This document shows, one piece after another, positions 34,545 through 63,385 of a stretch of 64,000 bases of DNA. The notes under the pieces are model-generated. The model ran no database searches and was not told where the DNA came from. It worked only from the letters and a program-made list of their open reading frames with translations. Source of the DNA: Pyropia yezoensis (lineage: Eukaryota; Rhodophyta; Bangiophyceae; Bangiales; Bangiaceae); contig CM020620.1 of NCBI GenBank assembly GCA_009829735.1, forward strand, positions 2,235,447-2,299,446, read 5' to 3'. Positions within the stretch are counted from its first letter, which is position 1, and every line of letters starts with the position of its first letter. The translations under genes were made by a program, and so were the position numbers.

Positions 34545-34545
34545 T

Positions 34546-34559
34546 TGGTGGAGCAGCAG
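34546..34559 (+). other. Element B primer-binding site
   Basis: TGGTGGAGCAGCAG starts 2 nt after the LTR end. It is complementary to a tRNA 3' end reading CTGCTGCTCCACCA. The same 14-mer follows the 5' LTRs of elements A and C. Confidence 0.8.
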
Positions 34560-34769
34560 AGGACGGGTTTCCGTCACCTTTGTGGTGACGCCGTCTTCGG
34601 CCCTGGCACACGGATAGGGATCCGGTCCTTTTCTTGTACTCGTGGTGTTGCGACCTGATCGATTGTGTTGAGTTTTTACCTTTGACTGTGATCTACTGTT
34701 ACTCTCCCCAATCTACCCCCTCGCTCTCTTATTCGTGGTGATTGTTACGTCGGTTGACTGATTGTGACT

Positions 34770-36953: not shown

Positions 36954-37312
36954 TAGGAAGGATAACCGGGGGGCGCTGGGGTAACCCAAGCAAGCCACCC
37001 CGGAGTACCGCGGGGAAAGCCCCACGGAGAGCGCGGTTGAGCCGACGCCGCATCAACCCCCGGGTACACCTTCCGGCCCCGACGACACGACGTCAGGGGA
37101 TTGATGACCAACCACCAAGGCTGGGAGGAGAGGACGGGATGCCCCGTCACGTTGAACCAGCCAAGGGCCCTGTCCAGGATGCCCGAGGAACACCGGATAT
37201 CGGTGTAGGACATGTGCTGTTTACCTTGGAGAACTTCAAGGTATCAGCCACACTGGGGGTTGACCCCCAGTCGACACGATCGTACTACCCTGTACTGGAT
37301 ACAGGGGCTGGA
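36947..37312 (+). pseudogene. pol: Element B pol, N-terminal part to protease DTGAG (split by element A)
   Basis: The -1 frame after the slippery site runs open to the aspartic protease signature VLDTGAG at about 37292-37312. The chain is then cut by element A, inserted in the glycine codon region with duplication of CTGGA. It resumes in frame at 46620. Confidence 0.85.
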
Positions 37313-37885
37313 TGTAGCATCCCTAGCCCCGACTTGGCGCCGACCCGGGACTGCAACCAGAGGGCACCAGGTGCCAGAACACGCCCGCCGTGTGGCGATG
37401 GTTGGCGGCCGTGGCCCGTGCCCGGCACTGGGATGCGGTGGACTACGCTATCCACACGCGAGAGAGGGATTTCTGATGTGTTTTTGCATATTTGTGAGGG
37501 ACTTGATTTGAGAGAATTTGAGTGTGAGATTAGTGAGTGGGAATAGAATTAGTAGTGATAGTGGCCCCCGACCTGACGAGGTTAGACTCGGGTCGGGGCC
37601 ACTCGGGGTTATGGGGGGGGCTACCGGGCCAACGTGCCGGGGTTCCCCCAGATGCACGTTAAGAGGGACAGCGAGGCGCCCTCGGCCCGCGCCCTCAGGG
37701 AAAAAGACAACTGCGCGTTTGCTTTCCTCTTCCCCGTGTGCACTACCGTGCGTATCTGTTTGCCCGGCAAGCAGGCACGTGAGGCAACAGGCATACCATT
37801 CTCGTAGTTCCCCTTTCTGCGTTACCTGTCCCTTTCCCCCGAGGGATATTGACACGTGTCTGAGAGGATCGAGTTTTATACCACA
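37313..37885 (+). repeat. Element A 5' LTR
   Basis: 573 bp, TGTAGCATCCC...TTATACCACA. A diverged solo copy of the same LTR lies in the hAT element. Confidence 0.95.
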
Positions 37886-37889
37886 TATT

Positions 37890-37903
37890 TGGTGGAGCAG
37901 CAG
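37890..37903 (+). other. Element A primer-binding site
   Basis: TGGTGGAGCAGCAG, 4 nt after the LTR. Identical to the sites of B and C. Confidence 0.8.
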
Positions 37904-38094
37904 GGGATTGGAGTGTTTGAGAAGAGACATTTGGGAGCAGCGGTTGCGTTGTTCCTATTCTGTCTTTTTCTGTGGTTTGGGAATTATTTGCACCCGTTCA
38001 CGGGAACCCCATTCCTGGCTCTCCAACCCCTCTCTTGTGGTCTTGCGATCTTTGGACACGCAGGTAACTGGACTGTGGCTGTCAAGAGACCAAC

Positions 38095-43943: not shown

Positions 43944-44088
43944 GAAGAAGGGAACGGGTATATCAAGGATAACACGCAACGCAAGCATGGAACAATCAAG
44001 GAAAACAAGCACCCGCTCGAGCAACCCTTCTCTCCGCCTCTTCCCTCCTCGCTTCTCCCAAGACCCTCACCCTCCTTGCCTCCAACTA

Positions 44089-46049: not shown

Positions 46050-46614
46050 CCCTAGCCCCGACTTGGCGCCGACCCGGGACTGCAACCAGAGGGCACCAGG
46101 TGCCAGAACACGCCCGCCGTGTGGCGATGGTTGGCGGCCGTGGCCCGTGCCCGGCACTGGGATGCGGTGGACTACGCTATCCACACGCGAGAGAGGGATT
46201 TCTGATGTGTTTTTGCATATTTGTGAGGGACTTGATTTGAGAGAATTTGAGTGTGAGATTAGTGAGTGGGAATAGAATTAGTAGTGATAGTGGCCCCCGA
46301 CCTGACGAGGTTAGACTCGGGTCGGGGCCACTCGGGGTTATGGGGGGGGCTACCGGGCCAACGTGCCGGGGTTCCCCCAGATGCACGTTAAGAGGGACAG
46401 CGAGGCGCCCTCGGCCCGCGCCCTCAGGGAAAAAGACAACTGCGCGTTTGCTTTCCTCTTCCCCGTGTGCACTACCGTGCGTATCTGTTTGCCCGGCAAG
46501 CAGGCACGTGAGGCAACAGGCATACCATTCTCGTAGTTCCCCTTTCTGCGTTACCTGTCCCTTTCCCCCGAGGGATATTGACACGTGTCTGAGAGGATCG
46601 AGTTTTATACCACA
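46042..46614 (+). repeat. Element A 3' LTR
   Basis: 573 bp, apparently identical to the 5' LTR. It is preceded by the purine tract GGGAGGGAGCTA and followed by CTGGA. Confidence 0.95.
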
Positions 46615-46619
46615 CTGGA

Positions 46620-49600
46620 CCCAACCTTATCCGGAAGGATACCCTTCCGGACAAGTGGCTTCCGCGAGTCAGAGTGACTCGGGGACCCACCATCAAGGAC
46701 GCGAACGGTCGCCTCATTCGTACGACCGCAGCGATGTCGCTGCGGGTTACCATCGGGGAACTCACCACGGAAGTCGACTTCCTGGTGTGTGAGACCCTAT
46801 CGGTGCCCTGCATACTGGGGTGCACCTTCATCAACGTTCACTTTGACGCAATCCGGCCAGGCCGGAGGACCGTCGAGCTTCAAGAAGCCGACGGGACGAA
46901 GCGAGGACATACGGCTATCGTCAGGGACCTGACGCTACATGGGAGCCACGTTAACGTGGCTGAGGTGTACGCAAGCGTCGAGCCGAAGACACTTCGGTTA
47001 GCCAAGCGAACTCGCTTTGAGCCATTGTCGGAGACTGTCCTCCCGGTTAACTGCGACCTCGCAGGCATCTGCAGAGTCCGGTCCAACCTGCGGACGTACA
47101 AGCGCCATGGGTTGACCATGGCCAACGGTCTCATAGACCTCCCAGCAGGAGGGTCGTCCCTCCTAGTGATGGCGAACTATCGCCGTAAGGCAGTCACCCT
47201 CCCGAGGGGAACTATCATCGGGATCGCCGAGCTCTACGAAGGAGATATCCTTACCCCTGACAAGGAAGGTCAAGTGGAACCAGTTGAGGTGCTGGCGGTC
47301 GCCGAGACCACCGAGCGACAGCAACCCGATGACGGGAAGCCTAGTCGACCATCATTACCGGCGGATATTCCGCCGAAGGACCAAGAAGCACTGAAGGCCC
47401 TGGCCGAGGCTGACCTCGACCACCTTCCCCCTTCGGTAGCCGAAGGGGTACGACGGATGCTAAGAAAGCATGACGTCATGTGGACAGGCGGAGCCTTGGG
47501 TACCATTGGGGCAACCCAACATCGTATAGACCTGGTACCAGGCGCACGACCCGCCCGGTCACAACCGCACCGAGCGGGACCTATGCAACGAGAGATCTTT
47601 GATGGAGAAGTGAAGAGGATGAGCGAAGCGAAGGTGATACGACCTTCGATGTCGGAGTGGGGTGCCCCAGTCGTCATCGTACCGAAGAAGGATCAAACTC
47701 CTCTGTTCTGCATCGATTATCGACGCCTCAACTTGGGGACCAAGAAGGACTCCTATCCTTTACCAAGGATGGATGAATGCATCGACTCCCTGGGGGAAGC
47801 TACGGTGTTTACCACCATCGACTGCAACGCCGGATACTGGCAGATCCCAGTGGCGGACGAGGATATCCCCAAGACGGCATTCGTCTGTCACAGTGGAGTG
47901 TACGAGTTCCTAAGGATGCCCTTCGGATTGTCCAACGCCCCCGCTACTTTCCAGCGGGCTATCGACATTATACTGTCGGGGGTGAAGTGGCGTAACTGCC
48001 TAGTGTACCTCGATGACGTCATCGTCTTCTCGCGTAACATGGATGACCATGTGCAACATGTTGACGAGGTACTCACCCTCTTGAGGAACGCCGGGGTAAC
48101 CCTGCGTCTGAAGAAGTGCGCCTTCTTCCAACAGACGGTCGAGTATCTGGGCCACCAGATAACCCCTGGTAAACTATGGGTACTCGAAGCCAATACCCGG
48201 GCACTCCGGGATGCTCGGTTCCCTAACACCCAGACACAGCTCAAGAGCTTCCTGGGAATGTGCAATGTATACCGACGGTTCGTCAAGGACTTCGCTCGGA
48301 TAGCTAAACCGTTAACGGTTCTTACGAGCAGTACCTTGCCCAAGGTACTCCAAGCCCCTTCGCCTAGCGAAGAGGAGGCATTCGAGTCGCTGAAGCGAGC
48401 CCTACTATCCCCACCCGTCCTTGCGTTACCGCACAGACGGGGGACCTTCGTCATCGATGTCGATGCGTGCGACACCCAAGTGGGATGCACTCTTCTACAG
48501 GGAGAGACGTTGATCGGTTCCGATAACGTTATCCCGGACCTACGTCCGGTAGGGTACTTCAGCCGGACACTCAACCCGGCTGAGCGTAACTATAGTGCCA
48601 CCGAGCGTGAATGCCTCGGAGTTATATGGGCAGTGCAACTGCTCCGTCCATACCTGGAGGGCTCCAGGTTCATCTTGAGGTCCGACCACGAACCCCTACG
48701 ATGGCTCCTCAACCTTGGTGACAAGGATTCCGATAGCCATGGGAGGCTAGCCCGATGGAGGCTGAAGATGGCCGAGCACGACTACCGCACCGTGTATAAG
48801 GCTGGGTCAACCCACCATCTCGGAGACGCATTGTCTCGACTCGACACCCCGAGCGGGGATACCCGCCCGGTGGACGGGGACATCCCGGTGGTGCCGGTCT
48901 GCATGGTCGGTAACGCTACCCAAGGTATGGTTGACCATACCATGGCACACCGAGCATGCCCACTGACCCTCGCGGACTTCCGCGAGGCACAGGCCAATGA
49001 CGACGACTGTAGACGTCATCGCGCTAACCTCCTGGCCGGCACGGCCGGCATCTTCTCCGAGAATGAAGACGGACTCATATACCGGCGGGCACCCGCCGAT
49101 GGACGACATCAAGTCGTGGTCCCCGTGTCCTTACGGCAAGCCGTCATGGAACGAGAACACGAGAACCCTACAGCCGGACACCCGGGGGGTTCACGTATGT
49201 TCGCAGCAATGCGAAGGTTCTTCTACTGGCCAGCAATGGCCGTCGACGTGGTCGACCACGTAAGGGGGTGCCACCCCTGTGCACGTAACCGCATGAGTCT
49301 ACATAGGCAGGCGTCTGTTATGAAGCTATTCCCACCCGATGGGCCCAGCGAGCAAGTCGCTATCGACATACTCGGGCCACTTCCGGTAACGGAAGAAGGA
49401 AACAGGTACATCCTGGTCATGTCTGACCGCTTCACCAAGCTGTCACGAGCGGCAGCCATCCCGAATGATACGGCATACACGATTATGAACGCAGTGGTTG
49501 ACCACTGGATCAGTGCATACGGAGTCATGAAGCAACTCCTCTCCGACAACGGAGCAAACCTTACGTCAGCATTCTGCACTAAGGTCCTGGGCATGTTCGG

Positions 49601-50435
49601 TATCGAACCACGTCGGGCATCCGACTACCACCCGCAAACCAACGGGCAGGTGGAGCGGTTCAACCGCACCATCGTCAAGATGCTACAGTGCTACGTGGCC
49701 GAGCACACGAACACTTGGGACAGGCTTCTGTCCGTACTCACCCTGGCATACAATGCCAGGCCACATCGGAGCACGAACATCGCTCCACTGGAGTGGGTCA
49801 TGCCCTTAGGCGTCGGTAACCTGACGCTGCCGCCAGGCAGGTGCACTCGGTATGATACACCGAAAGGCCGACCGGCCGAACGTATCCACCTAGCTTGGTT
49901 GGCCAAGCTATCGTGGATGATTCCTAAGCTCAAGGGTGCCCTTGACAGAACACAACTTCGATACAAGAAGAACTTCGACGCCCGGCTACGGGTGCGCAAC
50001 GCAACCCTGGTAACAGGTGACTGGGTCTACATCAGACACCAGAAGTTCCGGGGGAACAAGCTCATGCAACCGGTCAAGGGACCGTACCAGATTCTCCACA
50101 GAGATGACCACTCTGTCATCTTACACTCCGATACGGAGATCCAACGCATCAGTGTGAATGATGTCACACCTGCTCCGAAGCCGGAACAGCCTCAGCCGGT
50201 ACCGGCTGGGTTGCTACATGAAGCTCTTACAACCCACCGGTCAGATGACCCGGTGGGACCGGATGGGATTCCATACCAAGTAGAGAGCGTGGTCGGACAC
50301 ACCGACCCGGACCAACCAGGACCCTGGTACGTCAGGGTTATGTGGGTCGGATACGACTCACCCACCTGGGAACAGGCGGCAAATATACCCCGCCAACTCC
50401 TCATGCCTTACATGAGGCGACGACGCCTACTGTAA
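46620..50435 (+). pseudogene. pol: Element B pol, RT-RNase H-integrase-chromodomain part
   Basis: This continues the frame from 37312 after the nested element. Reverse transcriptase shows FCIDYRRLN and YLDD (about 48007-48018). RNase H shows DVDACDTQVGC and ATERECLGV. Integrase has an HHCC-like zinc region (EHENPTAGH, CHPCARN) and a D,D-35-E core (VAIDILGPLP, LLSDNGANL, HPQTNGQVERF). The C-terminus has a short chromodomain-like motif (VRVMWVGYDSPTWEQ, about 50328-50372), the targeting module of chromoviruses. It is open to TAA 50433-50435. Domain order PR-RT-RH-IN defines Ty3/gypsy. It is functional in sequence apart from the element-A split. Confidence 0.92.
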
Positions 50436-50513
50436 CAACCCAACCGACACAGACTTCGGCTGTTGGGGGGTGAGGCTTATACCTACTAAGTAGGGTGTGA
50501 CATGGTTACGGCA

Positions 50514-50601
50514 GACTTAGGTTTCTAAGTCAAATCAGACTTAGGTTTCTAAGTCAAACCAAGCTTAGGTAACTAAGTAGAGTCAAGCTTAGGTAACTAA
50601 G
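50514..50601. terminator. Four tandem hairpins between pol and antisense gene of element B
   Basis: GACTTAG-GTTT-CTAAGTC occurs twice (50514-50531, 50538-50555), then CTTAG-GTAA-CTAAG twice (50564-50577, 50588-50601). Pol ends at 50435 and the antisense gene ends at 50589, inside the last hairpin, so the array sits between two convergent 3' ends. A transcription-termination or RNA-processing role is inferred only from this position. Confidence 0.6.
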
Positions 50602-52283
50602 TAAAACCTGAACCTTAATAAGTTAACTGAAAGGGGAAGGGCTAGCACCCCAGCCCAGTTCACGGCATCGTGAACAGCCAGCAGGGCTTCGAACTCCCGG
50701 GCCAACCCGGTCATGGCGGCTATCAAGTCCATGCCCAACTGCGCGATGTGCCGACGGACACCCGTCGGAAGATGAAACAGGCGCCCCTGCCGGCGGACGG
50801 ACAGCAAGAAGGAGGAAGCCTGCCCGAGGGTAACCTCAAGGGTGAAGGTACCCTGCAACGGGTGGACCGGTCGGGAGGCCAACACACTCCCGAAGTATCG
50901 GAGACAGGAGCCGGTGTCAAACCGGAAAGCAGGGGCGGGTTCCCACCCCTCCTGCCATAGCGGCGGGCGCACGGGGGTGTATACCGGTGCACGACCGTTG
51001 CCGGTCTGCAACGCACACGTTATATCGGTGCGGAACGCATCCGCCATGACACCATGGTTACGTCGCCAGCTCGACGCCGACTTCAACCCCGCCATAGGCG
51101 GGTAGGGAGCCGTCAACGACAGATACGGGGATACCCCCGGGTAGTAATCAAAGTCGGGATACCGACCGGTATCGCCCACCGTCTCCCCAAACGCGACCGG
51201 CTCCGCCGCCGCCGCAATCCCCCGAGCACTAGCCGGGTAGTCAACCTCCCGCGGCAACGCGGGAACAATCAGGTCGCATACCCCGAAGGCGGGGTCGAGG
51301 TAGACCTCACCCCGTCCCACCCGGGTGCGCCAGAGCTGCGCATGCCGGTCGTCCGGCTGACTCAGGATCCAATGGTGTTCCACCCGCACCGCGTTCGGCT
51401 GGTTGACCAGCCGCACCAACTCCCGCTCCCAACTCGGGTCCACCTTGACGCGCCGGGAGGACTCTCCACGGGGAAGCGGCTGGTGGAAGTCCACCCGCAT
51501 CAGCCCATCGGACTCCACTGACTCTTGCACAGTCAGGCCTCGGACCCGAGCCACCAAGTCGAACATCGACATGGCGGGTTGACCCGCCGCCACGGCGATG
51601 CCGCCACCCAACGGGGCAACCCGGGCAGGACCAGGAAGAATCGGGGGCGCCGGGGGATGCCCCACCGGCAGATGAGCAGGTGCCGGAGGTGCACGGGGCC
51701 GAGGAGGAAGAAGAAGGGCGGGCGCCCGCCCGGAGTAACTACCGGAGTCCACTGCCATCGGTGTAGACCCACCTTGACCACCAGACGCCCGCGGCACCGC
51801 GGGCAGAGCAACGCCGCCACCCGAGCCCGACGTGGGCACCTCGGGGGCAGCAGGGGTAGACCCGTCACCCGCAGCCGCGGATGAACCACCCGGGCGGGCA
51901 CCCGCGCCGTCTTGACCCGCTGTCCCGGTCGGGGTGCCACCATAACCACCCGACACGCCGGCGACGCCGTCTTGAGGTTGAGCCGCGCCGGCACCGGCGA
52001 CAGGAGCCATCCGGGCCGCCGGAGGAGTAGGGGTAGACGCAGCAGCTACCCGCGGTTGCCCGCCACCTGACGGAGCCGTCGTGCCGCTGCACACGGACGA
52101 CAAACCGCCTGGAGCACCGTCCGGAGCCACGCGAACGGTCACCCGGTCGTCCTCGTCCTCCCACGAGCTCGCTAAGAATCACTCGGCGGCGGTGGCAGAG
52201 ACGGGAACGTCGTCCACCATCACCTCTTTCTCCTCCTCAAGCAGGGGGTCGTCCTCGCCCCCGGGTACCTGGGGGTCCGACAT
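50589..52283 (-). pseudogene. Element B antisense gene (novel retroelement protein), one in-frame TGA
   Basis: On the strand opposite gag-pol, a frame runs from ATG 52283 to TAA 50591-50589, about 564 residues. It is interrupted once by TGA at 52181-52179. The N-terminal third is acidic, then Gly/Pro/Ala-rich. The C-terminal part is ordered-looking, with VMADAFRTD, LRYFGSV, VRRQGRLFHLP and EALLAVHDAVNW. The last patterns align by eye with the antisense protein of element C (FGSV, VQRRGMLWHLP, EEMLRLHKFIEW) at nearly the same spacing. No known fold or catalytic motif is recognised. Possible roles are an accessory regulator or an RNA-binding or packaging factor; these are guesses. Confidence 0.65.
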
Positions 52284-52850
52284 GATGACCGGGGTAGCAG
52301 GGGCGCCCCGTGCAGAAAAGCCGAGGCCGGCTCGACCCGGTACGAGGAACGCTCGCGCGGACGAGCCAGGAAAGCGCGGGCGCCCGCGCTTATAACCACA
52401 CAGTTCAGCACGAGCGATACGGCAGCGCGGGACGACCCGCGCCAGCCGAGCTACGAGGGCGCTCCACCCAGGCACCTGGACCGGAGCCACGCTCCCCCCA
52501 CACGGGGTAACCAGGGGGGTCACCCCCAACCGCCCCCACGCAACGCGGGCAGTTCCCGCCCCCACTCACTCGTCCACACGAGAGGGGCCCCCCTACCACC
52601 AGGCACCTGGTGGCGGATCCGCTTGCACCACCCCTCGGAAAGGAGGGTCGTGAACAGAACCCGCATCGGGAATTTAACGGTCCGGAAAACGGATCGTGTG
52701 TGTACCACACAAAGGGGGGCACCCCCCTCAGGCAACCTCGAAAAGGGGTGTCTGTCGCGACAGGGCGCAAAGCCCCACCCGACTGGTAAACGGTCACGCG
52801 ACCCACTTACATAACCCGAATGCAACTCGACCCGAGGACGGGCCGAATCT

Positions 52851-52860
52851 AAGGGGGGGA
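52851..52860 (+). other. Element B polypurine tract
   Basis: AAGGGGGGGA immediately precedes the 3' LTR (52863), as required for plus-strand priming. Confidence 0.7.
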
Positions 52861-52862
52861 CA

Positions 52863-53225
52863 TGTAGCAATATGGGTGGCCGTATTGTGACCCTAATGTT
52901 AGGGGGGCTACTTCTAATCCTTGGCTTTCAATTTGAGAGTCCGTACTGGTCACGGTATCTATAAGTTACGTATGACCAGAGGGACTTGCATCTTGGGGTG
53001 GAGGGTAGTTAGTAGTGTCTCCGAGGGTTTATAACGTGGGGGCCGGCGGCGAATCCACCGCCGGCCAAGACAGAACAACAAACCCCTCCCATTTGGGCTC
53101 CCATCTTGGTCCCGTGGCTTGTGCTCCAAGGACAGCAACCTTGGCCTCCCGGTGACGTTGGTGCCGATCCCCCTTGGTGAGTGTTCCCTGAGAGTGGACG
53201 TGCGACGGATTCCTATTGTGCTACA
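52863..53225 (+). repeat. Element B 3' LTR
   Basis: 363 bp, differing from the 5' LTR mainly at two bases about 40-45 nt in. It is followed by target duplication CCCCA (53226-53230). Confidence 0.93.
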
Positions 53226-53557
53226 CCCCACCGCCGCCGCCGCGCCGAAGCCGCCCCTGCCATCGCCGCGGCCGTCACTGCCGCCGCCGCCGCCGTCGCC
53301 GCTGCTGCCGCCACCGCCGAGGCGGCCCCGCGGCGGCGCCTTGCCGCCGCGGCTGGCGGTAGCCGCGGAGGCGACGGCGGCCCCCAGCCCCGCCGCCGCG
53401 GCGGCACCGGCCCCGCCGCCACCGCCGCCACCGCCGCCACCGTCGACGGTGGCGCCGCGGCGAAGGGCGTTGGCGGCGGCGCGGATCCTCCCCCCCCACC
53501 CACCCAACGCTGCCCCCACCGCCGCCGCCGCGCCGAAGCCGCCCCTGTCGTCGCCGC
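53226..53557. repeat. GCC-rich minisatellite, middle fragment
   Basis: 332 bp of the same repeat that flanks elements B and C, including TTGCCGCCGCGGCTGGCGG and CCGTCGACGGTGGCGCCG. It is bounded by the two separate insertions (CCCCA on the left, GCCGC on the right). Confidence 0.8.
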
Positions 53558-54027
53558 TGTGGCAGTATTGACCCCCAGGTAGGGGGGCAACACGTGCCAT
53601 GCAAGGGGCGGCAGGCCACTAGCCTGATCCGTTCCTCCCCCTGCATTTGGGTCCATATTCCCTAAGTTTGGGATAGTTAGCTTAGTAGTAAATCCAACTT
53701 GGATTTGAGGGTTTTCTGCATTTATCGTCTTGAATTTTCGTGTGGCCCGGTGGGCAGGTGCTGGGGTGGGAGATTCTGAGTGGCGAGATTCTGAGTGGAC
53801 CCTGGGGGGATAAGGGGAGGGACAGCGGGGCTTGGCCCTGCGTCCCCGTCCCGACCAAGAAACTGTTGGACCACACACCATCCTCTTGTTTGTCCGTGGG
53901 GGGTTTGCCCCACAACAGGGACAGAGTGTGTGCGACTTGCACTTCTTCCGGTTCCCCCGACACGGGAGGCAGCCCTAGCACACCGCCCCGACTTGGGTGC
54001 CATTGTGTGCTTGTGGTTTTTGCCACA
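53558..54027 (+). repeat. Element C 5' LTR
   Basis: 470 bp with TGTGGCA...TGCCACA inverted ends. A direct GAGATTCTGAGTGG-type repeat lies near the middle (about 53770-53800). Confidence 0.93.
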
Positions 54028-54029
54028 TT

Positions 54030-54043
54030 TGGTGGAGCAGCAG
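54030..54043 (+). other. Element C primer-binding site
   Basis: TGGTGGAGCAGCAG, 2 nt after the LTR end. Identical to A and B. Confidence 0.8.
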
Positions 54044-54146
54044 GGGGCAGAGGTAAACTTTACCTCCGGGTGCACCCGGGTGTAGGGGGCCCTCTGTCTC
54101 AGAGGAACGGTGGTCTTGGACCGTGTCATACGGATCGTCAGCCAAC

Positions 54147-56094
54147 ATGGCTAGCTCGGACCCCCCGTCGTCCGGGGAGTACACGGGTGACGCACGTACT
54201 TCAGTGCCTTTGAATACTGGTGAGACACCGGTGGGTTGACCTGGGGTCGCAGAGGGACTAGAGGTCCCTCAAGCCAGCAGGACTGGAAGTACGGGCGGGC
54301 AACAGGCCACCCCGACTCAGTCGGGAGTTCACTCGGGTGACACTTCTGATGTGGGTGGGCCGAAGTCTGGCCACCGCGTGGTATACTCAACGGGAACGTC
54401 CCAAGGGGTGAGGACTGTCCCCGCGGGTTCCACTCGGGTTGGAGCCAACTTTGGCTTGGAGTCGTCGCCAACTAGGCTTTCGGAGGACGGTGGACCTCCG
54501 TTGGTCGGCGATGGGCTCGCGCCCATGCCCCCGGTTGAGATCCCTGAGGAACGTGGTTACCCCTCAGGTGGACTCCCGGAGGCGGACCGAGACTCAACTG
54601 GAGTCGTCAATCCACTCCTCGCGGAAACTGTCCGTCGGGAGGCGACCAATGTGTTGCGGCAGACTTTGCCGGACCTGGTGGTCACGATGACGAATACTAT
54701 TCTGAATCAGATTGTGGCGAGTTTGCCAGATGGCCTTAATGTCCAGACCGGATTGGGGCTTTCGAGCCCGCAGGCGCAGGGGGAATCCCCCCTTACGCCT
54801 ATCTCTGGTCGCCCCGAAATTGGGGGCGACACCTGTGACTCCCAACGAGGGAGCCACACCATACTCGGTGGGGCGTACGCCCTTCACGGGGGAGTTCCCC
54901 CCGGAAACGCCGGCGGCTACACCAAGCGCGCCGCGCCGGACTACAGGCACTGAGCGTGAACTTACCCCAGTGCCACAGCGGCTGTTCCCTCAACGTGAGG
55001 TGCCGCCCAAGATCCAGGTAGCCAACCCGGTCTACCAGAGGATCTTTGACTGTGAGACCTACGCCCTCCACAACAAGTCGGTGGCGTATGGTCCTGACCA
55101 GGCCCGAGCCATGGGCCGTGCCAAGAAGAATGCACTTCATTCTTTTGGGCACAAAGCGGAGTGGGACGGAACTCCCCCCCTCCGTGTCTTTGAGTTCCTA
55201 CGTCGTTTCACAAAAGCCTGTGACGACAATGCCATAAGTGAAGGCATGGCTTTTTACATGCTACAGGAGTTTACGAAGGGCGACCTACGGACAGAACTTA
55301 TGTCCGTCATGCCCAGCTCCTCAAGTGGAGGCGCTGGGGAGGTGACGTCCTATTTGGAGCTCGTCAACTGGTTGTTGAGAGCCATGGTTGATGAGGCAGC
55401 GTTGGCTTCTCAAGTCGAGGAGTTTACGCAAGCCCATCAGGAAGAGGCGGAGGACGAGTTGTCCTTTGCGGAGCGAGTCCGTAAGCTCAATAATCTTTGT
55501 GGGTTTCTTCATCCACAAGCTGTGGTGAAGAGTCGGTTTGTGGAGGGACTCCATTGGTCAGTCCGGATGGAGACCCGGGAGCATAACACTACCCGGGCGA
55601 CCCTGGCCGAGTTGGCCAGGTTCGCCTATCGCAGAGGCGAGGCCTACCGCAAGTTGCGGGAGGAACAACGCCAGGAGCGTCAGGCCGAGTTGGCCAAGGA
55701 ACGGGAGGAGGCGCGCCAGGCCAGAGAGTTGAGAGAGGCACGCCGAATCCGCAAGGAGAGGGTGGTAGCTGCCGTGGGAACTTCCCAGGGTATCCCTTCG
55801 TCTTCCCCAGTTGGGAAGACCCCTCCCGGACCGGACCATCGGTGTTGGAACTGCAACTCCGATGGTCACTGGGCATATGATTGCCCCAAGTTGAGTAAAC
55901 GCATCCAACAACTTGTTAGGAATGCGAGTAAAAAGTCGGCTACGAACGAAGTACGTTCACGCCGCGAGGGTGGGTCTCGACCGGTCGTCGCGGTCGCCAC
56001 ACCCTCGGCGGAGGAGGCGGACACGTCGTCCTCGGACTCGTCGTCTTCCTCCCCGCCCTCAGATTCGGACGCCAAGTCGGCGGGAAACGAATGA
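54147..56094 (+). pseudogene. gag: Element C gag, with an in-frame TGA and a frame change
   Basis: ATG 54147 opens a Ser/Thr/Gly-rich N-terminus that meets TGA at 54237-54239. The same frame resumes to about 54800, including a helical ETVRREATNVLRQ segment, then the coding sense moves to another frame near 54780-54830 and continues to TGA 56092-56094. That part holds the gag capsid-like region (AFYMLQEFTKGDL, SYLELVNWLLRAM), a long charged helix (EQRQERQAELAKERE) and the CCHC knuckle CWNCNSDGHWAYDC (about 55850-55891). It ends AGNE-stop. Two lesions make this copy defective for gag. Confidence 0.8.
56082..56088 (+). promoter_or_regulatory. Element C -1 frameshift slippery site GGGAAAC
   Basis: Gag codons GCG GGA AAC GAA TGA keep G GGA AAC in slippery phase. 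An ATG overlaps the gag stop as ATGA (56091-56094), so stop-restart could be an alternative. A CCGTTG/CAACGG stem lies just downstream (56096-56101 with 56122-56127). Confidence 0.8.
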
Positions 56095-59000
56095 CCGTTG
56101 GGGCTGGTCGTCCGAAGCTCACAACGGCAGCCTCGGCCAAGTGGGCCAGGAGGACGAACCAACCGTGCCGGATACTGCGGCGACCTAAGGGAGTCCGCCC
56201 ACCTCGGGTAGGACTCCCCAAGAACGTAAACCCACGTCGGGTCATCGCGGTGCTGACGGGTGAGAACTTCCAGGTGGCTGGACGGGTGCAACTTGCCCCC
56301 GGCCGTGCATGCTGTACCCGTATCGTACTTGATACCGGGTCAGGAGCCTCCTTGATACGCAAGTCGCTATTACCAAAGGAGGTGAAGCTCCAACGCTGGA
56401 GGTCCAATGCTGACCATATGATTGACATCAATGGTGGGGTACTTCCCATCGTTGGTGCCGTGACCCTACCAACTAGGTTGGGGACCCATGAGGTCGACGT
56501 GACCTATGGCGTAGTTGAGAATATATCGGTACCCCTGCTTCTGGGTACCCCTTATGTTTTTACACAAGCGCCTTTGATTTGTGGCCCTGAGTACTGGGTC
56601 AAGTTGATGAATGGGGAGACTATCCCCATCCTTGGTAAGGGAAAGTCTGTGGCTCCTGTGACAGTCTCACAGTCGAAGCCTGTTTGCTCTGTGAGGGAAG
56701 GGTTTACTGCTACCCTGCGTTTAGCCCGCAAAGTCACGTTGTCCCCCAACTCGGTGGCGCACGTTGATGTTGTAACTGATTTTACGGGGAACGGGTTGGT
56801 GCACCCTCACCCCCGTCTTGCTCGCAAGCACCAAGTGCATGTTGCCCTTGGCACGATGGACTCCAAAGCCGGAGTCCCGTGGAGGATCCAGGTGATGAAC
56901 CTGAGCCCGACGCCCAAGTACTTCAAGTCGGGAGCCAAGTTCGGCTATATCGACCAACACGAGGGACCGGTAGTAGCGGTCACCCTCAACGCGGGCGCAA
57001 GTAGCGACCCGAGGTCCGGAAAGGAGAAGCATCAAACCAAGTCGGCCGCCTCTCCTCGACCCCATGTGAACATGGAGGGTGTCCCCCCCAGGTTGAGGGT
57101 TCAAGTTGAACGCCTCTTGGACCAATATCACAAGCTGTGGGATGGTCAATTGGGACTCATGAGAGCCACCCAACACCGGATCGAGTTGAAGCCCGGTGCA
57201 CCCCCTATACGCCAACAACCGTATAGGGGAGGACCTCGTTCAAGGGCCCTCGTTAAGGAGCAAGTTGCTCGCATGGAGGCCCTCGATGTGATCGAGGCCA
57301 GCAACGCCGAGTGGGCGAGTCCGGTGGTTATCGTCCCCAAAGTTGATGGGACCCCCCGGTTTTGTATCGACTACCGTAAGCTCAACGAGAGCACGGTGAA
57401 GGACAGTTATCCCCTACCTAGGATGGATGACTGTCTGGACTCTCTGGGGGAGGCAAACGTGTTCTCTACCCTGGACTGTAACGCGGGGTACTGGCAAATT
57501 CCCATTGCCCCGGAGGACAGGCATAAAACTACCTTTACCTGTCACTGTGGTACCTACCAGTGCAAGCGCCTACCGTTTGGTCTGTGTAACGCGCCGGCAA
57601 CCTTCCAGCGCGCTATGGACATGATTCTGGCCGGAGTACGGTGGCAGATCTGTCTTGTGTACCTAGACGATATCATTGTGTTCTCCCGAAGTCCGGAGGA
57701 ACACATTGGCCATCTTGGCCAGGTGTTCAAGCTACTTGCTGACGCCGGTGTGTCACTGAAGGCGAGTAAGTGCCACCTCTTTACTCAAGAGGTGGAGTAC
57801 TTGGGACATGTTGTCCATCCGGGGCGTCTCAGTGTTAACGAGAAGAAATTGAGGGCCATTCGTAAGGCTCAGTACCCCCGGACCCAGACCCAGATGAGGA
57901 GCTTCCTCGGGATGTGTAACGTGTACCGACGTTTCACCAAGGGCTTCGCCAAGGTGGCGAAGCCGTTGAATGAGCTAGTGAGCTCAACGCTACCGAAGAA
58001 CCTGCCTCCCCCAAGTCGGGTGGAGCAGGAATCCTTTGAGACTCTTCGGGACCTTCTGCTGAAGCCCCCCATCTTGGCTATTCCCAGGTTGGGAGGCCAC
58101 TACATCCTGGATGTGGACGCTAGCTACGACCAACTTGGTTGTGTGTTGCTTCAGCAGCAGCCGGACAAGGAGTACTTGCCGGTGGGATACTTTAGTAAGG
58201 GGCTGAACTCGGCCGAGAAGAACTACGGAGTCACCGAGTTGGAAGGACTCGCAGTGGTGTGGGCGGTGACGTCACTTCGTCACTACCTGGAGGGTGAGAA
58301 GTTCCTCATCCGCTGTGACCACCGCGCGTTGCAGTTCATCTTTAAGACGGACTGTACGAACACTCGTCTCAACCGGTGGAGGGTGCGACTGGCACCTTTC
58401 AACTTTGACATTGAGTACCGACCTGGCGGGCAACATGCCCTTGCCGACGGCCTCTCTCGGGTACCTACCGAGGGGCTGGACACTAACCCAGTCGATGAGG
58501 ACATCCCCATCGTGGGGGTAGTCACGCGCTCGGGTCAGGCGTTGAACCCCGAGGCGCCAGGGAACAAGAAGTACTTGCCCCTGTCCCTGGACGAGGTGGT
58601 GAAGGCCCAGGCCGAGGATCCCTTCTGCAAGTCGCAGAGGGATATACTGGATACGGTGGTTGAGACGCGCTTCTTTCTGGGAGACGATGGCCTCCTCATG
58701 AGGAAGGGGGTATTCCAGGGGACCGAACAACTTGTCGTCCCCGCATCCCTCAAGGACAGTATCCTTGAGAGGGAGCACAACGCTCCCACGGGTGGACACC
58801 TGGGGTCTAGTAAACTGTACCAGACCCTGAGGACCAGGTACTACTGGCCGTCCATGGTGGTGGACATCTACAGTTGGGTGGCTGCCTGCACAAGTTGTGC
58901 ACAGAATCGTCTGATGGAACGGCGGCCTAGTACGGCTATGCTATTGTTCCCGGCCAAGGAGCCCTTCGCCGCGTTGGCGATGGACATCTTTGGGCCACTG

Positions 59001-60074
59001 CCCGTGACCGAGGAGGGCAACCAGTACCTCCTGGTCATCTGTGACCGCTTCACGAAACTTACGCGAGCGATCCCACTGGCAGAGATCACGGCCATGTCGG
59101 TCGTGTCAGCCTTCCTAGATCACTGGGTTGCCGCGTATGGCATCCCAGATAGTACACTATCGGACAATGGACCGCAATTTGCGTCTGTACTGTTTCAGGG
59201 AGTGCTGGATATGTTGGGGTTTAAGGCAAACTATGCCACCCCCTACCACCCACAAACTAATGGGCAGGTGGAGCGCTTCAACAAAACTATTGTTAGGCAG
59301 CTACGCCACTATGTGAGTGAGCACGTAAAGACGTGGGACCAATACATTTCTATCCTTACTACTGCCTACAATTCGCAGGTTCACTCATCTACAGGGGAAG
59401 TACCCCTCGCTTTTGTGACCCCCCGTCGCGTGCGGTCTATTGCCGTGCGGCGGTCGCTCCCAACTAGGGAGGATGGTGGCAGTACGCCTACTCCTACTGA
59501 GAGTAAGGCGGAGTTCGCCGCTAGGCTTGAAAACCTCATCCCTAAAGTCAGGGCTGAGATGGACAAAGCACAAAAGCGCTACAAGCGTACCTTTGACAAA
59601 AAGGTGCGCAATGCTAAACATGTCCCCGAGCAGGGTGACTGGGTGCTGGTACACTCGCACACCCCAACTGGGGGTAAGCTGGTATTCCAGACGAAGGGAC
59701 CGTACCAGGTCCTTCGTACTGATGGGCGGCGCTTCACCATCGAAAGTGACGATGGGGTCCGCACAGTGAACGGACAGGACGTGGTCAAAGTTGCACCACC
59801 GCCTGCAGGAGACCCAGCTTGGGCGCGTGCGTTGGAATCGTGGCGCCTCCCCTCACTGCCTGCGGCCAAACAGGGCCCACAGGAGTACGTGTTCGATAAG
59901 TTCATCGACCACGGATGGGATGAAGACACTGACCGCCTCATGTTGAGGGTGCGTTGGTTTGGCTACAAAGCCAAGGATGATACGTGGGAGTATGTGGAGG
60001 ACCTTCCCGCTGAGAAGGTCCGGGCGTACTGTGCCCGGAATGAGATAGACCCTAACAGCCCTCCCTCAACGTGA
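56091..60074 (+). CDS. pol: Element C pol polyprotein (PR-RT-RNase H-IN-chromodomain)
   Basis: Intact, 1,327 residues from the ATG overlapping the gag stop. Protease VLDTGSGAS (about 56328). Reverse transcriptase FCIDYRKLN, PFGLCNAPATF and YLDD (about 57659-57670). RNase H LDVDASYDQLGC and YGVTELEGLAV, with Glu-Leu in place of Glu-Arg seen in A and B. Integrase zinc region (EHNAPTGGH, CTSCAQN) and catalytic D (LAMDIFGPLP), D (LSDNGPQF) and E (HPQTNGQVERF). Chromodomain LRVRWFGYKAKDDTWEY (about 59944-59994). It lies in the -1 frame relative to gag. It copies element RNA into DNA and integrates it; the chromodomain probably guides target choice. Confidence 0.95.
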   Translation: MTVGAGRPKLTTAASAKWARRTNQPCRILRRPKGVRPPRVGLPKNVNPRRVIAVLTGENFQVAGRVQLAPGRACCTRIVLDTGSGASLIRKSLLPKEVKLQRWRSNADHMIDINGGVLPIVGAVTLPTRLGTHEVDVTYGVVENISVPLLLGTPYVFTQAPLICGPEYWVKLMNGETIPILGKGKSVAPVTVSQSKPVCSVREGFTATLRLARKVTLSPNSVAHVDVVTDFTGNGLVHPHPRLARKHQVHVALGTMDSKAGVPWRIQVMNLSPTPKYFKSGAKFGYIDQHEGPVVAVTLNAGASSDPRSGKEKHQTKSAASPRPHVNMEGVPPRLRVQVERLLDQYHKLWDGQLGLMRATQHRIELKPGAPPIRQQPYRGGPRSRALVKEQVARMEALDVIEASNAEWASPVVIVPKVDGTPRFCIDYRKLNESTVKDSYPLPRMDDCLDSLGEANVFSTLDCNAGYWQIPIAPEDRHKTTFTCHCGTYQCKRLPFGLCNAPATFQRAMDMILAGVRWQICLVYLDDIIVFSRSPEEHIGHLGQVFKLLADAGVSLKASKCHLFTQEVEYLGHVVHPGRLSVNEKKLRAIRKAQYPRTQTQMRSFLGMCNVYRRFTKGFAKVAKPLNELVSSTLPKNLPPPSRVEQESFETLRDLLLKPPILAIPRLGGHYILDVDASYDQLGCVLLQQQPDKEYLPVGYFSKGLNSAEKNYGVTELEGLAVVWAVTSLRHYLEGEKFLIRCDHRALQFIFKTDCTNTRLNRWRVRLAPFNFDIEYRPGGQHALADGLSRVPTEGLDTNPVDEDIPIVGVVTRSGQALNPEAPGNKKYLPLSLDEVVKAQAEDPFCKSQRDILDTVVETRFFLGDDGLLMRKGVFQGTEQLVVPASLKDSILEREHNAPTGGHLGSSKLYQTLRTRYYWPSMVVDIYSWVAACTSCAQNRLMERRPSTAMLLFPAKEPFAALAMDIFGPLPVTEEGNQYLLVICDRFTKLTRAIPLAEITAMSVVSAFLDHWVAAYGIPDSTLSDNGPQFASVLFQGVLDMLGFKANYATPYHPQTNGQVERFNKTIVRQLRHYVSEHVKTWDQYISILTTAYNSQVHSSTGEVPLAFVTPRRVRSIAVRRSLPTREDGGSTPTPTESKAEFAARLENLIPKVRAEMDKAQKRYKRTFDKKVRNAKHVPEQGDWVLVHSHTPTGGKLVFQTKGPYQVLRTDGRRFTIESDDGVRTVNGQDVVKVAPPPAGDPAWARALESWRLPSLPAAKQGPQEYVFDKFIDHGWDEDTDRLMLRVRWFGYKAKDDTWEYVEDLPAEKVRAYCARNEIDPNSPPST

Positions 60075-60377
60075 GGGAAGGCCGAGTAACAGTGCCAAGA
60101 GAGTGCTTCAAGTCGAAGTGGTACGCAGAGTGGCTTTTAACTACAGCCCTAACCCTCACACTCTCACAACAAAGGCAGCTGCCAACTAGGCACGCATGCT
60201 AGACTCTCCCACTCCACGGCCCTCGCCCTCACGTGGAGGCGAGCGGCGAGACCCACGCCGATAACGGTCTACACTTGTTGGAGGGGGCGGCGGCTCCAAG
60301 TCGGAACCGTCGCGTCCCTCACGGTCGCGCAAGTGGCGCCGACCGTGGCCACTCTTCTGCCTGGTCTTGCGCGCAAG
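60075..60377. other. Junction between convergent pol and antisense gene of element C
   Basis: About 300 bp separate the pol stop and the antisense stop. Unlike element B, I see no tandem hairpins here. It should hold the 3' ends of both transcripts unless they overlap. Confidence 0.5.
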
Positions 60378-62129
60378 TTAGCGACGCAGACGCTGGACAG
60401 ACTCCGTCTCCGACGGGGTAGAGGACTCCGAAACGGAATAAGACAACTCGTCTTCCGATACGGAAGGAGAGCGCCGCGAGTGTCGGCGACGACGGCGAGG
60501 AGGCGAGTATGCCCGGCTCGCGCGACGTTTGCCACGCCCAAGTGGGGCTGGCTGGGGCATAATAGCCCCAATGCGAGCCAACTCGGCTGTCATAAACTCC
60601 GCCACCGACTCGCAACTCGCGGTCGCCACTGCAGTACGAACGCGCTCCTCAAGTTGAGGAGTCTCGGAACTCTGTAGGGCTGCGGTCGACGCGGCCAACC
60701 AGGAAATGGTGCGCACCAACGTGGTGATCATCATCTCTGAGGTTAGAGGCGTGGGCGGCAACACCAACTTGGGGTATACCGTCAGGAGGGTGGCCCCCAA
60801 GTTGGGGGACACAGGGGTGGAAGACTCCACGGCCACGCTGATCGGGATGTTCCCGTGAGGTTGGAAAGGAACAGGAGGAAGCGGAGGGGCCCGCCGAGGT
60901 GGCGGTACCCGGGTGTAACTGCGACCCCGACTTGGGGCCCCCGCAGTGGGTTGAGTCATATGGTCATCATAGGACGGCACGGCCATAACTATGGGCTTGT
61001 CCGGGGGTGGCGCAGTGTGGCGATCCACCCCCGGGGCATACGGGTAGTCCCCGATGCCCAACCCCTCTCGTAGGACCACACGGCCGTCGTGAAGTTCACG
61101 AGCGACCCACACGAACTGGCGAAGTGCGCCATCGTCCTTGGGCCCACGAGTGGGGCGGCGCAACTTGTGCTCAATGCTCTCCCACTCGATAAACTTATGG
61201 AGCCGGAGCATCTCCTCAAGTAGAGTGAGTTGTCCTGATGAGCACCCCTCAGCAACTAGCTGAGGGGTGAGCTGCTCCAAACCTTGGAGGAGCCGGAGAG
61301 GGAGATGCCAGAGCATCCCCCGCCGCTGAACACAGGACACCCAGGTCGACATGACCTCGAGGAGCCACTGGGTGGCCAACATGGCCCACACCAGGTGATC
61401 AGGGGCAGCCGTCAACATGACGGAGCCGAAGTGGTCAAGCAACCGTGGCAACAACGCCGGGAACCCGTAGGGGACCTCAACTTGAGGCCACCACTCGGGC
61501 TTCTTCGGATAGTACTGCTCCTTACTGGCAGCAGACTGTTGAGGAAACTCAAGTTGAGCCGAGGTGACCAAGTAGGGACCTCGCCGGAAGTCTTTCTCCA
61601 TCCGCACATCAAAGTGATGAGTGTGCGGATCGGCCTCGTGGAGGTACGGTGGGCGAGTTGCCACAGCGTCCCACGTGAAGGTCGGCAAGTCGCCGGGACC
61701 CGGGATAGTTCCCCCGCGGTCCACCATGGCCTTGGCACGCTGAACGTCCTCAACCTCCTCATCGTCCAGGAAGGCAAACTGCTCCGTCCTGAAGCCGGCA
61801 GGGAACCCGACCCTACGGGGATACTTCTCCCGTAGGCGGTCCCATACCCGGCCCATCGCTGCGCCAAGTCGGCCACAGCGAAGAACAGTCAGCCCCTCCT
61901 CATAGAGAGGCCAAGCGGGGTAAAACCACCGCCCCAAGGCCTCACGCGGGACAACTTGTCCCGCCTCCGGGGGAGACCCCGCCGTCAACCCAAAGCCGGG
62001 TGACGCGGGAGTCCCGTCCCCCGGAGCGATCGCGGAGCCCCCGCCGGAAGTCCCGGCGGGTGCTGCCCCGTAGGAGGTGTCCTCCATGCGCTCGTCAAGA
62101 GAGTCCGTCTCCACTCCCGGAGTCGCCAT
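60378..62129 (-). CDS. Element C antisense gene: intact 583-residue novel retroelement protein
   Basis: A complete frame on the strand opposite gag-pol, from ATG 62129 to TAA 60380-60378. The frame is open further upstream but without another ATG. The N-terminus is acidic and Gly/Ser-rich. The middle (about 100-330) is rich in aromatic residues and looks globular (FYPAWPLYEEGL, FRRGPYLVTSAQLEFP, HFGSVMLTAAPDH, VQRRGMLWHLP, EEMLRLHKFIEW). A Pro-rich linker follows, then a basic Arg/Ser tail (SPPRRRRRHSRR) and a Ser/Glu-rich end. The tail resembles an NLS or an RNA-binding RS region. The core matches element B's antisense protein at similar spacing. No known family is recognised. Its 583 codons without a break, in an element whose gag is broken, argue that it is a real gene. 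Confidence 0.75.
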   Translation of the reverse strand: MATPGVETDSLDERMEDTSYGAAPAGTSGGGSAIAPGDGTPASPGFGLTAGSPPEAGQVVPREALGRWFYPAWPLYEEGLTVLRCGRLGAAMGRVWDRLREKYPRRVGFPAGFRTEQFAFLDDEEVEDVQRAKAMVDRGGTIPGPGDLPTFTWDAVATRPPYLHEADPHTHHFDVRMEKDFRRGPYLVTSAQLEFPQQSAASKEQYYPKKPEWWPQVEVPYGFPALLPRLLDHFGSVMLTAAPDHLVWAMLATQWLLEVMSTWVSCVQRRGMLWHLPLRLLQGLEQLTPQLVAEGCSSGQLTLLEEMLRLHKFIEWESIEHKLRRPTRGPKDDGALRQFVWVARELHDGRVVLREGLGIGDYPYAPGVDRHTAPPPDKPIVMAVPSYDDHMTQPTAGAPSRGRSYTRVPPPRRAPPLPPVPFQPHGNIPISVAVESSTPVSPNLGATLLTVYPKLVLPPTPLTSEMMITTLVRTISWLAASTAALQSSETPQLEERVRTAVATASCESVAEFMTAELARIGAIMPQPAPLGRGKRRASRAYSPPRRRRRHSRRSPSVSEDELSYSVSESSTPSETESVQRLRR

Positions 62130-62454
62130 GGCTCTCCCCAAGTTGGGGAGAGACGCTCTGGCTATCGCAGCACGAGACCCGCCTCGAGTTGAGGGGGACT
62201 CGGATCGTGGGTATACGGGTGGCCTCCCCAGCGTGGGGCGGCCCAGTGGAAGGTGAAGGGGAGGTGGTGGTGATGGTGAAGTGTGAACTGAGGAGAGCAA
62301 GCTGCCGAGTGGGCAAGCTTGAGGAGAGGGGCGGTCAATGTGACCGCCTCCGCATCCGTGTTACGTACTCGATGGGGGACAGCAAGTCGCGCCCCCAACG
62401 CCGAGACGTTCGTTTACGCACCCCCTCACAGGGCCGACCGGGTCGGTCGGAACT

Positions 62455-62466
62455 GAGGAGAGGGGA
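62455..62466 (+). other. Element C polypurine tract
   Basis: GAGGAGAGGGGA directly precedes the 3' LTR (62468). Confidence 0.7.
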
Positions 62467-62467
62467 G

Positions 62468-62936
62468 TGTGGCAGTATTGACCCCCAGGTAGGGGGGCAA
62501 CACGTGCCATGCAAGGGGCGGCAGGCCACTAGCCTGATCCGTTCCTCCCCCTGCATTTGGGTCCATATTCCCTAAGTTTGGGATAGTTAGCTTAGTAGTA
62601 AATCCAACTTGGATTTGAGGGTTTTCTGCATTTATCGTCTTGAATTTTCGTGTGGCCCGGTGGGCAGGTGCTGGGGTGGGAGATTCTGAGTGGCGAGATT
62701 CTGAGTGGACCCTGGGGGGATAAGGGGAGGGACAGCGGGGCTTGGCCCTGCGTCCCCGTCCCGACCAAGAAACTGTTGGACCACACACCATCCTCTTGTA
62801 TGTCCGTGGGGGGTTTGCCCCACAACAGGGACAGAGTGTGTGCGACTTGCACTTCTTCCGGTTCCCCCGACACGGGAGGCAGCCCTAGCACACCGCCCCA
62901 ACTTGGGTGCCGTGTGTGCTTGTGGTTTTTGCCACA
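62468..62936 (+). repeat. Element C 3' LTR
   Basis: 469 bp. It differs from the 5' LTR at a T/A change near 62800 and around the GTGCCATTG / GTGCCGTG site near the end. It is followed by GCCGC. Confidence 0.93.

Positions 62937-63354: not shown

Positions 63355-63385
<31 letters not shown>

What the first reader, a model, noticed from the sequence alone, without database searches (positions are those of the whole stretch)
50589..62129. A conserved antisense gene carried by three distinct Ty3/gypsy families
Elements A (44089-46049), B (50589-52283) and C (60378-62129) each carry a 560-650 codon gene on the strand opposite gag-pol, between pol and the 3' LTR. B and C share FGSV, then about 31-33 residues later an R-R/Q-G-x-L-[F/W]-HLP motif, then an E-x-L-x-x-H-x-x-x-x-W motif. 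A shows a weaker counterpart (FIVSC...FWKL). Conserved coding across diverged elements implies selection. Antisense extra ORFs are known in some plant gypsy elements, but I know of no such protein family and none in red algae. This is the best candidate here for an undescribed system.
Basis: partly seen in the sequence, partly recalled or inferred. Interest (0 to 1): 0.9.

Follow-up and report, generated by a model that had tools for sequence, protein, structure and literature searches.

The report
Antisense gene in seaweed retrotransposons
Several families of jumping genes in what is probably a red seaweed genome carry, written backwards at their far end, the same kind of extra gene; it bears the marks of natural selection, matches no protein family searched here, and may be a helper for the element that carries it.

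Summary
The observation largely holds. Elements A, B and C are complete Ty3/gypsy insertions (A nested in B), each with a gene antisense to gag-pol between pol and the 3' LTR. All three window copies are damaged: A lost about 115 residues, exactly the conserved core; B is frame-shifted; C stops early. Many other copies are open over 720-910 codons; at least 69 (C), 124 (B) and 150 (A) copies were listed. B, C and intact A share a roughly 130-residue core. Two more families (D, E) have it, as do 16 database proteins, one named from Pyropia vietnamensis. The frame is under purifying selection (C: omega 0.29, 0.05 for variants shared by copies; pol 3' end 0.43, 0.09). The five reverse transcriptases split off from the one other lineage compared. 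No significant Pfam, NCBIfam, PDB-sequence or fold match was found, PF04195 (antisense domain of plant Retand elements) included. Best reading: an accessory gene of one element clade, transcribed from near the 3' LTR, encoding a probably nuclear protein that regulates or protects its own element. Coding is well supported; function and transcription are inferred. The arrangement is known from plants and fungi; the protein family looks new.

The parts
37312..46614 (+). Element A, complete Ty3/gypsy insertion nested in element B; LTRs 37312-37885 and 46041-46614
   Evidence: LTRs 100% identical over 574 nt; pol 39984-43943 with RVT_1, RNase H, integrase and weak Chromo hits; 5-bp duplication read
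44089..46184 (-). Damaged antisense gene of A: frames 45096-46184 and 44089-45117; the conserved core between them is missing in this copy
   Evidence: 4 of the 6 fetched A loci have one long frame
34180..53225 (+). Element B, interrupted by A; LTRs 34180-34544 and 52861-53225; pol frame 46674-50435
50589..52142 (-). Antisense gene of B, open part 50592-52178 stop to stop; frame-shifted near both ends in this copy
50634..51029 (-). Conserved core of the B antisense protein (FGSV...RRQGRLFHLP...VHDAVNW); ends computed from P0002 residue numbers
53558..62936 (+). Element C; LTRs 53558-54027 and 62468-62936; gag 54712-56094 with CCHC knuckle, pol 56091-60074
60378..62129 (-). Antisense gene of C from ATG 62129, 583 codons; the frame is open from 62360 and runs about 64 codons further at its 3' end in most listed copies
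61188..61574 (-). Conserved core of the C antisense protein (stretch matched by intact A)
60075..60377 (.). Interval between the convergent pol and antisense stops of C in this copy; used as control for selection
   Evidence: omega 0.67-1.72 in its three plus-strand frames

Best explanation
A clade of Ty3/gypsy retrotransposons (possibly chromodomain-bearing) of a probably red-algal genome carries an accessory gene antisense to gag-pol between pol and the 3' LTR. Shown: the frame codes, is kept by purifying selection, and its core is homologous in five families (A-E) whose reverse transcriptases group together against the one other lineage compared; related proteins are in public databases. 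Follows from the anatomy: it cannot be translated from the gag-pol RNA, spliced or not, so it needs its own transcript running inward from in or near the 3' LTR and converging on pol; a full-length genomic RNA carries its exact complement. Inferred: the protein has variable low-complexity flanks, a helical core and, in C, D and E, a basic Ser/Arg-rich tail; it acts in the nucleus as an element-specific helper that controls or protects the element's own expression (for example against host silencing), as has been proposed for plant antisense ORFs and in the manner of HBZ of HTLV-1. About 0.97 for a coding, homologous gene family; about 0.4 for nuclear regulation or anti-silencing rather than another role.
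For: Coding: in 30 of 30 fetched C copies (30 of the 69 listed) S 96 / N 70, omega 0.29; variants in two or more copies S 33 / N 4, omega 0.05; pol 3' end of the same copies 0.43 and 0.09; interval between the genes 0.67-1.72; the other two frames on the antisense strand 1.46 and 2.40. A 0.21 (6 copies), B 0.37, its central part 0.17 (8 copies). D sub-families, dN/dS 0.072/0.661, 0.17/1.04, 0.167/1.109 for the three full-length pairs. Listed copies without a stop in the matched part: C 65 of 69, B 121 of 124, A 147 of 150, D 23 of 24 at 97% or more, E 6 of 6.
Homology: B-C 1e-9, A-C 3.6e-7, D-C 2e-7, D-E 1e-11. A profile of D, E and database relatives, with no A, B or C in it, hit only the C antisense frame among 1990 frames including reversed window frames (E 2.4e-7). 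Leave-one-out profiles recover A, B and C.
Placement: pol on the opposite strand in C 30 of 30, B 8 of 8, A 6 of 6 loci; D 1 of 10, no pol being recognised in the other 9 flanks. Of 27 RT places that I picked from the 150, 13 have a D-type core downstream on the opposite strand and 6 an E core; 8 have none in these lists.
Clade: A-E RTs 58-78% identical, separated with support 1.000 from 8 RTs of one other lineage at 38-43% (unrooted).
Databases: P0011 (Pyropia vietnamensis, 47%, 90% coverage) and 15 others.
Protein rather than RNA: 33 of 37 shared variants in C are synonymous.
Tails: C, D, E, P0014.
Against: No transcript, protein or localisation data. Copies were listed best-score-first by protein search, which lowers N; the pol control and the D sub-families lessen this but do not remove it. 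D within its 10 top copies gives omega 0.82 on 39 variants, shared variants 0.65; D-E pairs are near saturation with dN/dS 0.5-0.8. The D/E profile does not reach A or B directly, and A and B do not match each other. A conserved C-terminal domain was not recovered by leave-one-out. AlphaFold2 models are poor (mean pLDDT 41 and 39), with no fold match. The tail is weak in A and not evident in B: 11 and 8 K/R in the last 60 residues, against 15 in window C.
Confidence: 0.6

Rival explanations
1. The protein is a structural or replication part (particle component, RNA-binding chaperone or movement/envelope-like protein) and not a nuclear regulator; antisense placement only gives separate expression.
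For: It diverges between A, B and C about as much as gag does (BLASTP: gag 24-28% identity, pol 41-45%; antisense 24-25%), as a partner of gag or of the element's RNA would. RS/Arg tails could bind RNA.
Against: No similarity to gag beyond chance (best E 0.11) and no zinc knuckle or other significant Pfam domain. Envelope-like genes of plant elements are described in sense orientation (PMC7264820).
Confidence: 0.3
2. Antisense RNA is the functional product: its transcript pairs with genomic RNA over about 2 kb and limits copy number or feeds small RNAs; the open frame is secondary.
For: The convergent layout makes a perfect duplex unavoidable if both strands are transcribed; antisense non-coding transcripts are described for micropia and TART (PMC7264820).
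Against: Selection acts on the amino-acid sequence of one frame, and the protein core is kept between families whose DNA no longer aligns in the gene (the window's self-comparison at E <= 1e-10 listed no antisense-gene pair). It may be true in addition, not instead.
Confidence: 0.12
3. A captured host gene or a former separate transposon that rides along in reverse orientation.
For: No similarity to gag; reverse orientation is what an inserted gene could show; the origin is unknown, as in plants.
Against: Shared by five families of one RT group at the same place and strand; no host or transposon homologue seen. The genome searches score only the best candidates, so a host homologue is not excluded. 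This is about origin and does not conflict with a present function.
Confidence: 0.1
4. Chance antisense frame in GC-rich DNA (66% GC).
For: The window has many long frames on both strands (81 of 200 codons or more).
Against: Frame-specific selection, cross-family homology with decoys and shuffles, open frames in many copies.
Confidence: 0.01

Closest known systems
Antisense additional ORFs between pol and 3' LTR (aORF-3R) of plant Ty3/gypsy elements: Grande gene23, RIRE2, Retand; Boty of fungi
   Same: Place, strand, presence in most copies, conservation like other element genes, no known function (PMC7264820 parts 1-2 of 3; PMC11963269 passages, section 11 part 1 and section 12)
   Different: Different protein by sequence as far as tested: PF04195 gives no match in the proteins or in the genome. 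The host is probably a red alga; Retand is a non-chromovirus lineage of flowering plants (PMC11963269)
HBZ / APH-2, antisense proteins of HTLV-1/-2
   Same: Antisense protein of a retroelement, nuclear in HTLV (as told in PMC11963269); a works-like comparison only
   Different: No bZIP or other significant Pfam domain found; no link of descent shown. That HBZ is a bZIP protein is recalled, from no call
Envelope-like genes of plant LTR-retrotransposons (Athila, Bagy2)
   Same: Third gene between pol and 3' LTR (PMC7264820)
   Different: Those are in sense orientation; this gene is antisense
Hypothetical protein MMPV_008440 (P0011) of Pyropia vietnamensis and 15 proteins without a product name
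   Same: P0011: 47% identity over 90% of the D protein, E 2e-93
   Different: Genomic context could not be read, so that they lie in retrotransposons is inferred; P0009 and P0020 are 94-95% identical to sub-families of this genome and may come from the same species

Membership tests
[quoted passage not shown]
   A, B, C by LTR and pol coordinates; D and E only by their distance downstream of RT, their LTRs were not located
Antisense aORF-3R class | Opposite strand to gag-pol | tested here: met
   44 of 44 A, B and C loci opposite; 13 D-type and 6 E pairs opposite to an RT; 9 of 10 D loci had no recognisable pol in the flank
Antisense aORF-3R class | Present in most copies and conserved like other element genes | tested here: inconclusive
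   conserved like pol in C and open in nearly all listed copies, but copies were found through this gene itself, so the share of elements that carry it was not measured; 8 of 27 RT places had no core in the lists
Antisense aORF-3R class | Own antisense promoter / transcript (shown for Grande) | not testable with these tools
   no expression data on hand
TRP28 / Transposase_28 (PF04195) antisense proteins of Retand | PF04195 domain | tested here: not met
   no candidate in the genome search; none in hmmscan of A, B, C, P0005, D or D, E
Chromovirus (chromodomain Ty3/gypsy) | RT-RNaseH-integrase order of Ty3/gypsy | tested here: met
   Pfam hits in that order in A, B, C
Chromovirus (chromodomain Ty3/gypsy) | Chromodomain at integrase C-terminus | tested here: inconclusive
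   Chromo at the pol C-terminus in A (5e-4) and C (1e-3), both under Pfam's cut-off; none in B
HBZ-like antisense retroviral protein | bZIP domain (recalled) | tested here: not met
   no bZIP family listed for A, B, C, D, E at E <= 10 (the filters drop most matches above about 0.1)
Envelope-like third gene | Sense orientation | tested here: not met

The most novel reading that the evidence does not exclude
An undescribed family of retrotransposon accessory proteins, written antisense and specific to one Ty3/gypsy clade of bangiophycean red algae, that switches on, exports or shields its own element, for example by countering host silencing. It would be a protein-level control circuit evolved independently of plant TRP28 proteins and of HBZ, and a reason why these families reached a hundred or more copies each in a 107-Mb genome.
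Probability: 0.35. Interest if true: 0.78.

Novelty: new variant of a known kind. Interest (0 to 1): 0.62.

Why it matters
Antisense genes at this place are described in plants and fungi with no function assigned (PMC7264820, PMC11963269). A separate, probably red-algal, clade with its own antisense protein, with selection and homology measured across several families, would show that the arrangement arose more than once or is very old, and gives a comparative handle (core motif, near-identical copies, close relatives) for finding what such genes do. It also matters for annotation: at least one relative sits in a public genome as a 'hypothetical protein'.

Tried and rejected
PF04195 as the same domain: not found by HMM. 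A common C-terminal domain: the left-out family was never recovered, so I do not claim it. Origin from gag: no similarity beyond chance. Structure: two AlphaFold2 models agree only on a helical core followed by a hairpin, at low confidence; Foldseek gave nothing at E <= 0.001. Relatives by C alone or by the A/B/C profile: one protein only; the D-led profile found 16. Genome searches with A, B and C saturate on their own families; the smaller D family broke through to others. An early selection count mixed strands and a pol control was misaligned by indels (last block); both were redone. Whether P0011 also occurs in this genome could not be tested.

Papers: PMC7264820 parts 1-2 of 3; PMC11963269 section 11 (part 1 of 2), section 12 and passages; PMC12477816 and PMC2864245 passages only. 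All other papers were seen as search listings only.
Full report
WHAT IS THERE. The window lies in a 107.5-Mb genome of 11 contigs, of which C1-C3 hold 43.6, 34.3 and 29.4 Mb. That it is a bangiophycean red alga is inferred from size and the Pyropia relative below, not tested. Three Ty3/gypsy elements stand in a row: B (34180-53225) with A (37312-46614) inserted in it, then C (53558-62936). LTRs are 100%, 99.5% and 99.1% identical; TG...CA ends and 5-bp duplications (CTGGA, CCCCA, GCCGC) can be read in the flanks printed. Each pol has reverse transcriptase, RNase H and integrase; chromodomain hits in A and C are below Pfam's cut-off, and B has none.

THE ANTISENSE FRAMES. All lie between pol and the 3' LTR on the minus strand (the A frame also runs into the LTR). 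None of the three window copies is intact. A lacks about 115 residues that other copies have, and these are the conserved core; B changes frame near both ends; C stops about 64 codons before most listed copies. Elsewhere the frames are long and open: C frames mostly 724 codons, 65 of 69 listed copies without a stop in the match; B commonly 825 or 909, range 468-1021, 121 of 124 over the 323-residue query; A commonly 761-849 but with many shorter ones, 147 of 150 over the 164-residue query. A shorter C query returned 150 of 150 without stops in the match. All these lists are lower bounds, best score first. Of the fetched A loci 4 of 6 have one long frame; L048 is split like the window copy (L047).

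HOMOLOGY. B and C: E 4e-9 on the window copies, 1e-9 on intact copies; A and C 3.6e-7; A and B not significant, 0.018. Ten downstream regions of other elements were fetched (chosen from the 150 RT matches). One of ten, L062, gave a fourth family, D, by profile (E 0.0057 in the set searched) and by BLASTP to C (2e-7). A genome search with the D core (149 matches listed) returned 24 D copies at 97-100%, a ladder of sub-families and fragments from 87% down to 42%, family E (29%), and then many rows at E 2e-6 to 8e-4; two fetched from these, L074 and L077, are C-type, and several others coincide with C copies. D and E align over 307 columns at 27%, E 1.4e-11. A profile of D, E and database relatives hit only the C antisense frame among 1990 frames, reversed window frames included (E 2.4e-7); it did not reach A or B. 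Leave-one-out core profiles recovered A (0.0018), B (0.0011) and C (4e-14); besides the three families the only match listed at E <= 2 in the three tests was one reversed decoy at 1.8. In 1000 shuffles of the C core none reached the real score against A, B or D; the A and B cores gave no hit to each other.

SELECTION. Counting only real copies: C antisense gene in 30 of 30 fetched copies, S 96 / N 70, omega 0.29; among variants found in at least two copies S 33 / N 4, omega 0.05; 102 of 166 changes at third positions. Pol 3' end of the same copies: 0.43 and 0.09. The interval between the genes: 0.77, 1.72 and 0.67 in its three plus-strand frames. The other two antisense-strand frames of the gene: 1.46 and 2.40. 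One pol-strand frame also shows a low value (0.45), as expected because its third positions coincide. A 0.21 (6 copies), B 0.37 and its central part 0.17 (8 copies), D 0.82 on only 39 variants (10 near-identical copies). Between D sub-families dN/dS is 0.11 to 0.16 for the three full-length pairs, 0.18 to 0.35 for the seven pairs with the partial copies L076 or L081, and 0.5 to 0.8, near saturation, for the five D-E pairs; C against L074 gives 0.031/0.156. Caveat: copies were chosen by protein score, which biases N downwards; the pol comparison and the sub-families speak against this being the whole effect.

PLACEMENT AND DESCENT. Pol lies on the opposite strand in 30 C, 8 B and 6 A loci of 30, 8 and 6; for the D loci pol was recognised in 1 of 10, and it was opposite. 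Of 27 RT places that I picked from the 150 and compared with the D/E core places, 15 had a core on the opposite strand: 13 D-type about 4.0 kb and 2 E-type 5.2 kb downstream. One search found six E copies, all open (995-1085 codons); read, all six are opposite to a listed RT, and four of them pair RTs left unpaired before, so 19 of 27 pair and 8 do not. The RTs of A-E are 58-78% identical and are separated with support 1.000 from 8 RTs of one other gypsy lineage at 38-43%; the tree is unrooted and holds no further lineage. The 8 fetched downstream regions without a D or E gene (L053-L060; RTs of 5 of them, L053-L057, are among the 8) showed no core at E < 1; each was only a 2.4-kb stretch, so a gene at another distance could be missed. 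L061 turned out to be an E element, whose core lies mostly beyond the fetched end. As far as sampled, the gene marks one RT group.

DATABASE RELATIVES. C alone and the A/B/C profile found one protein, P0005, 96% identical. The D-led profile found 16, among them P0011, hypothetical protein MMPV_008440 of Pyropia vietnamensis (47%, 90% coverage, E 2e-93), P0014 (41%, 91%) and a EukProt gene model, P0013. Against the D-type loci held here P0009 and P0020 are 94-95% identical and may come from the same species; P0011 is at most 46%. Their genomic context could not be read, and a search of this genome with P0011 did not complete. P0014 shares with D the ending of acidic run plus Arg/Ser tail.

WHAT IT IS NOT. 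No significant Pfam match (best E 0.036, an unrelated family under its cut-off), no NCBIfam match for A-D at E <= 1, no PDB sequence of weight (none; best E 0.11), no PF04195 in the genome search or proteins, no relation to gag. Two structure models are of low confidence and match no fold.

HOW IT MOST LIKELY WORKS. Strand and position force a separate inward transcript (anatomy). The gene is maintained in spreading C copies about as strictly as pol, so it should help its element. It diverges between families about as much as gag and more than pol, which suits a protein tuned to its own element or to a changing host defence (inference). Ser/Arg-rich or basic tails in C, D and E, weak in A and not evident in B, suggest a nucleus- or RNA-directed protein (inference). 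I therefore favour a nuclear helper regulating or protecting the element; a structural role is the main rival.

KNOWN OR NEW. Antisense genes at this place are known in plant elements (Grande, RIRE2, Retand, PvRetro13) and fungal Boty, with unknown function; Grande's product is nuclear and its transcription has its own promoter (PMC7264820, parts 1-2 of 3 read). In Retand, 97% of clusters carry TRP28 (PMC11963269, abstract passage and section 11 part 1). Searches of open-licence PMC papers listed none whose title or abstract start reports such a gene in red algae; of the listed papers I opened four. Subscription papers and preprints are not held, so absence from print is not shown. I file it as a new variant of a known kind: same arrangement, a protein not matched by sequence to the known ones, a new host group if the organism is as inferred.

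Noticed in passing
window 27624-28197: An A-type LTR in reverse orientation (96-97% identical to the A LTRs) without a recognised partner in the window: perhaps a solo LTR.
   Followed up: no
window 53254-53559 and 62930-64000: C is inserted in a GC-rich, GCC-type tandem repeat: its two flanks are similar to each other and to further copies in the array.
   Followed up: partly
window 37886, 34545 and 54028 (just after the 5' LTRs): A, B and C share a primer-binding-site-like stretch (TTGGTGGAGCAGCAG), suggesting one common primer tRNA; the tRNA was not identified.
   Followed up: no
window 13729-16353, minus strand: An 874-codon frame with a clear protein kinase domain (PF00069, 5e-53).
   Followed up: no
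window 26254-27189, minus strand: Weak hAT dimerisation-domain match (0.006, below cut-off); possible DNA-transposon remnant.
   Followed up: no
L048: Another A copy with a split antisense frame beside an open pol end, so damage to this gene recurs in copies.
   Followed up: partly
L061 683-2401, minus strand (family E): The E antisense protein has a long Arg/Ser-rich run reminiscent of SR splicing factors (the likeness is recalled).
   Followed up: no
G000 RT places without a D/E core (8 of 27 compared): These elements look like D/E relatives by RT score, yet no antisense core was listed near them; truncated copies, loss of the gene or a limit of the search were not told apart.
   Followed up: no
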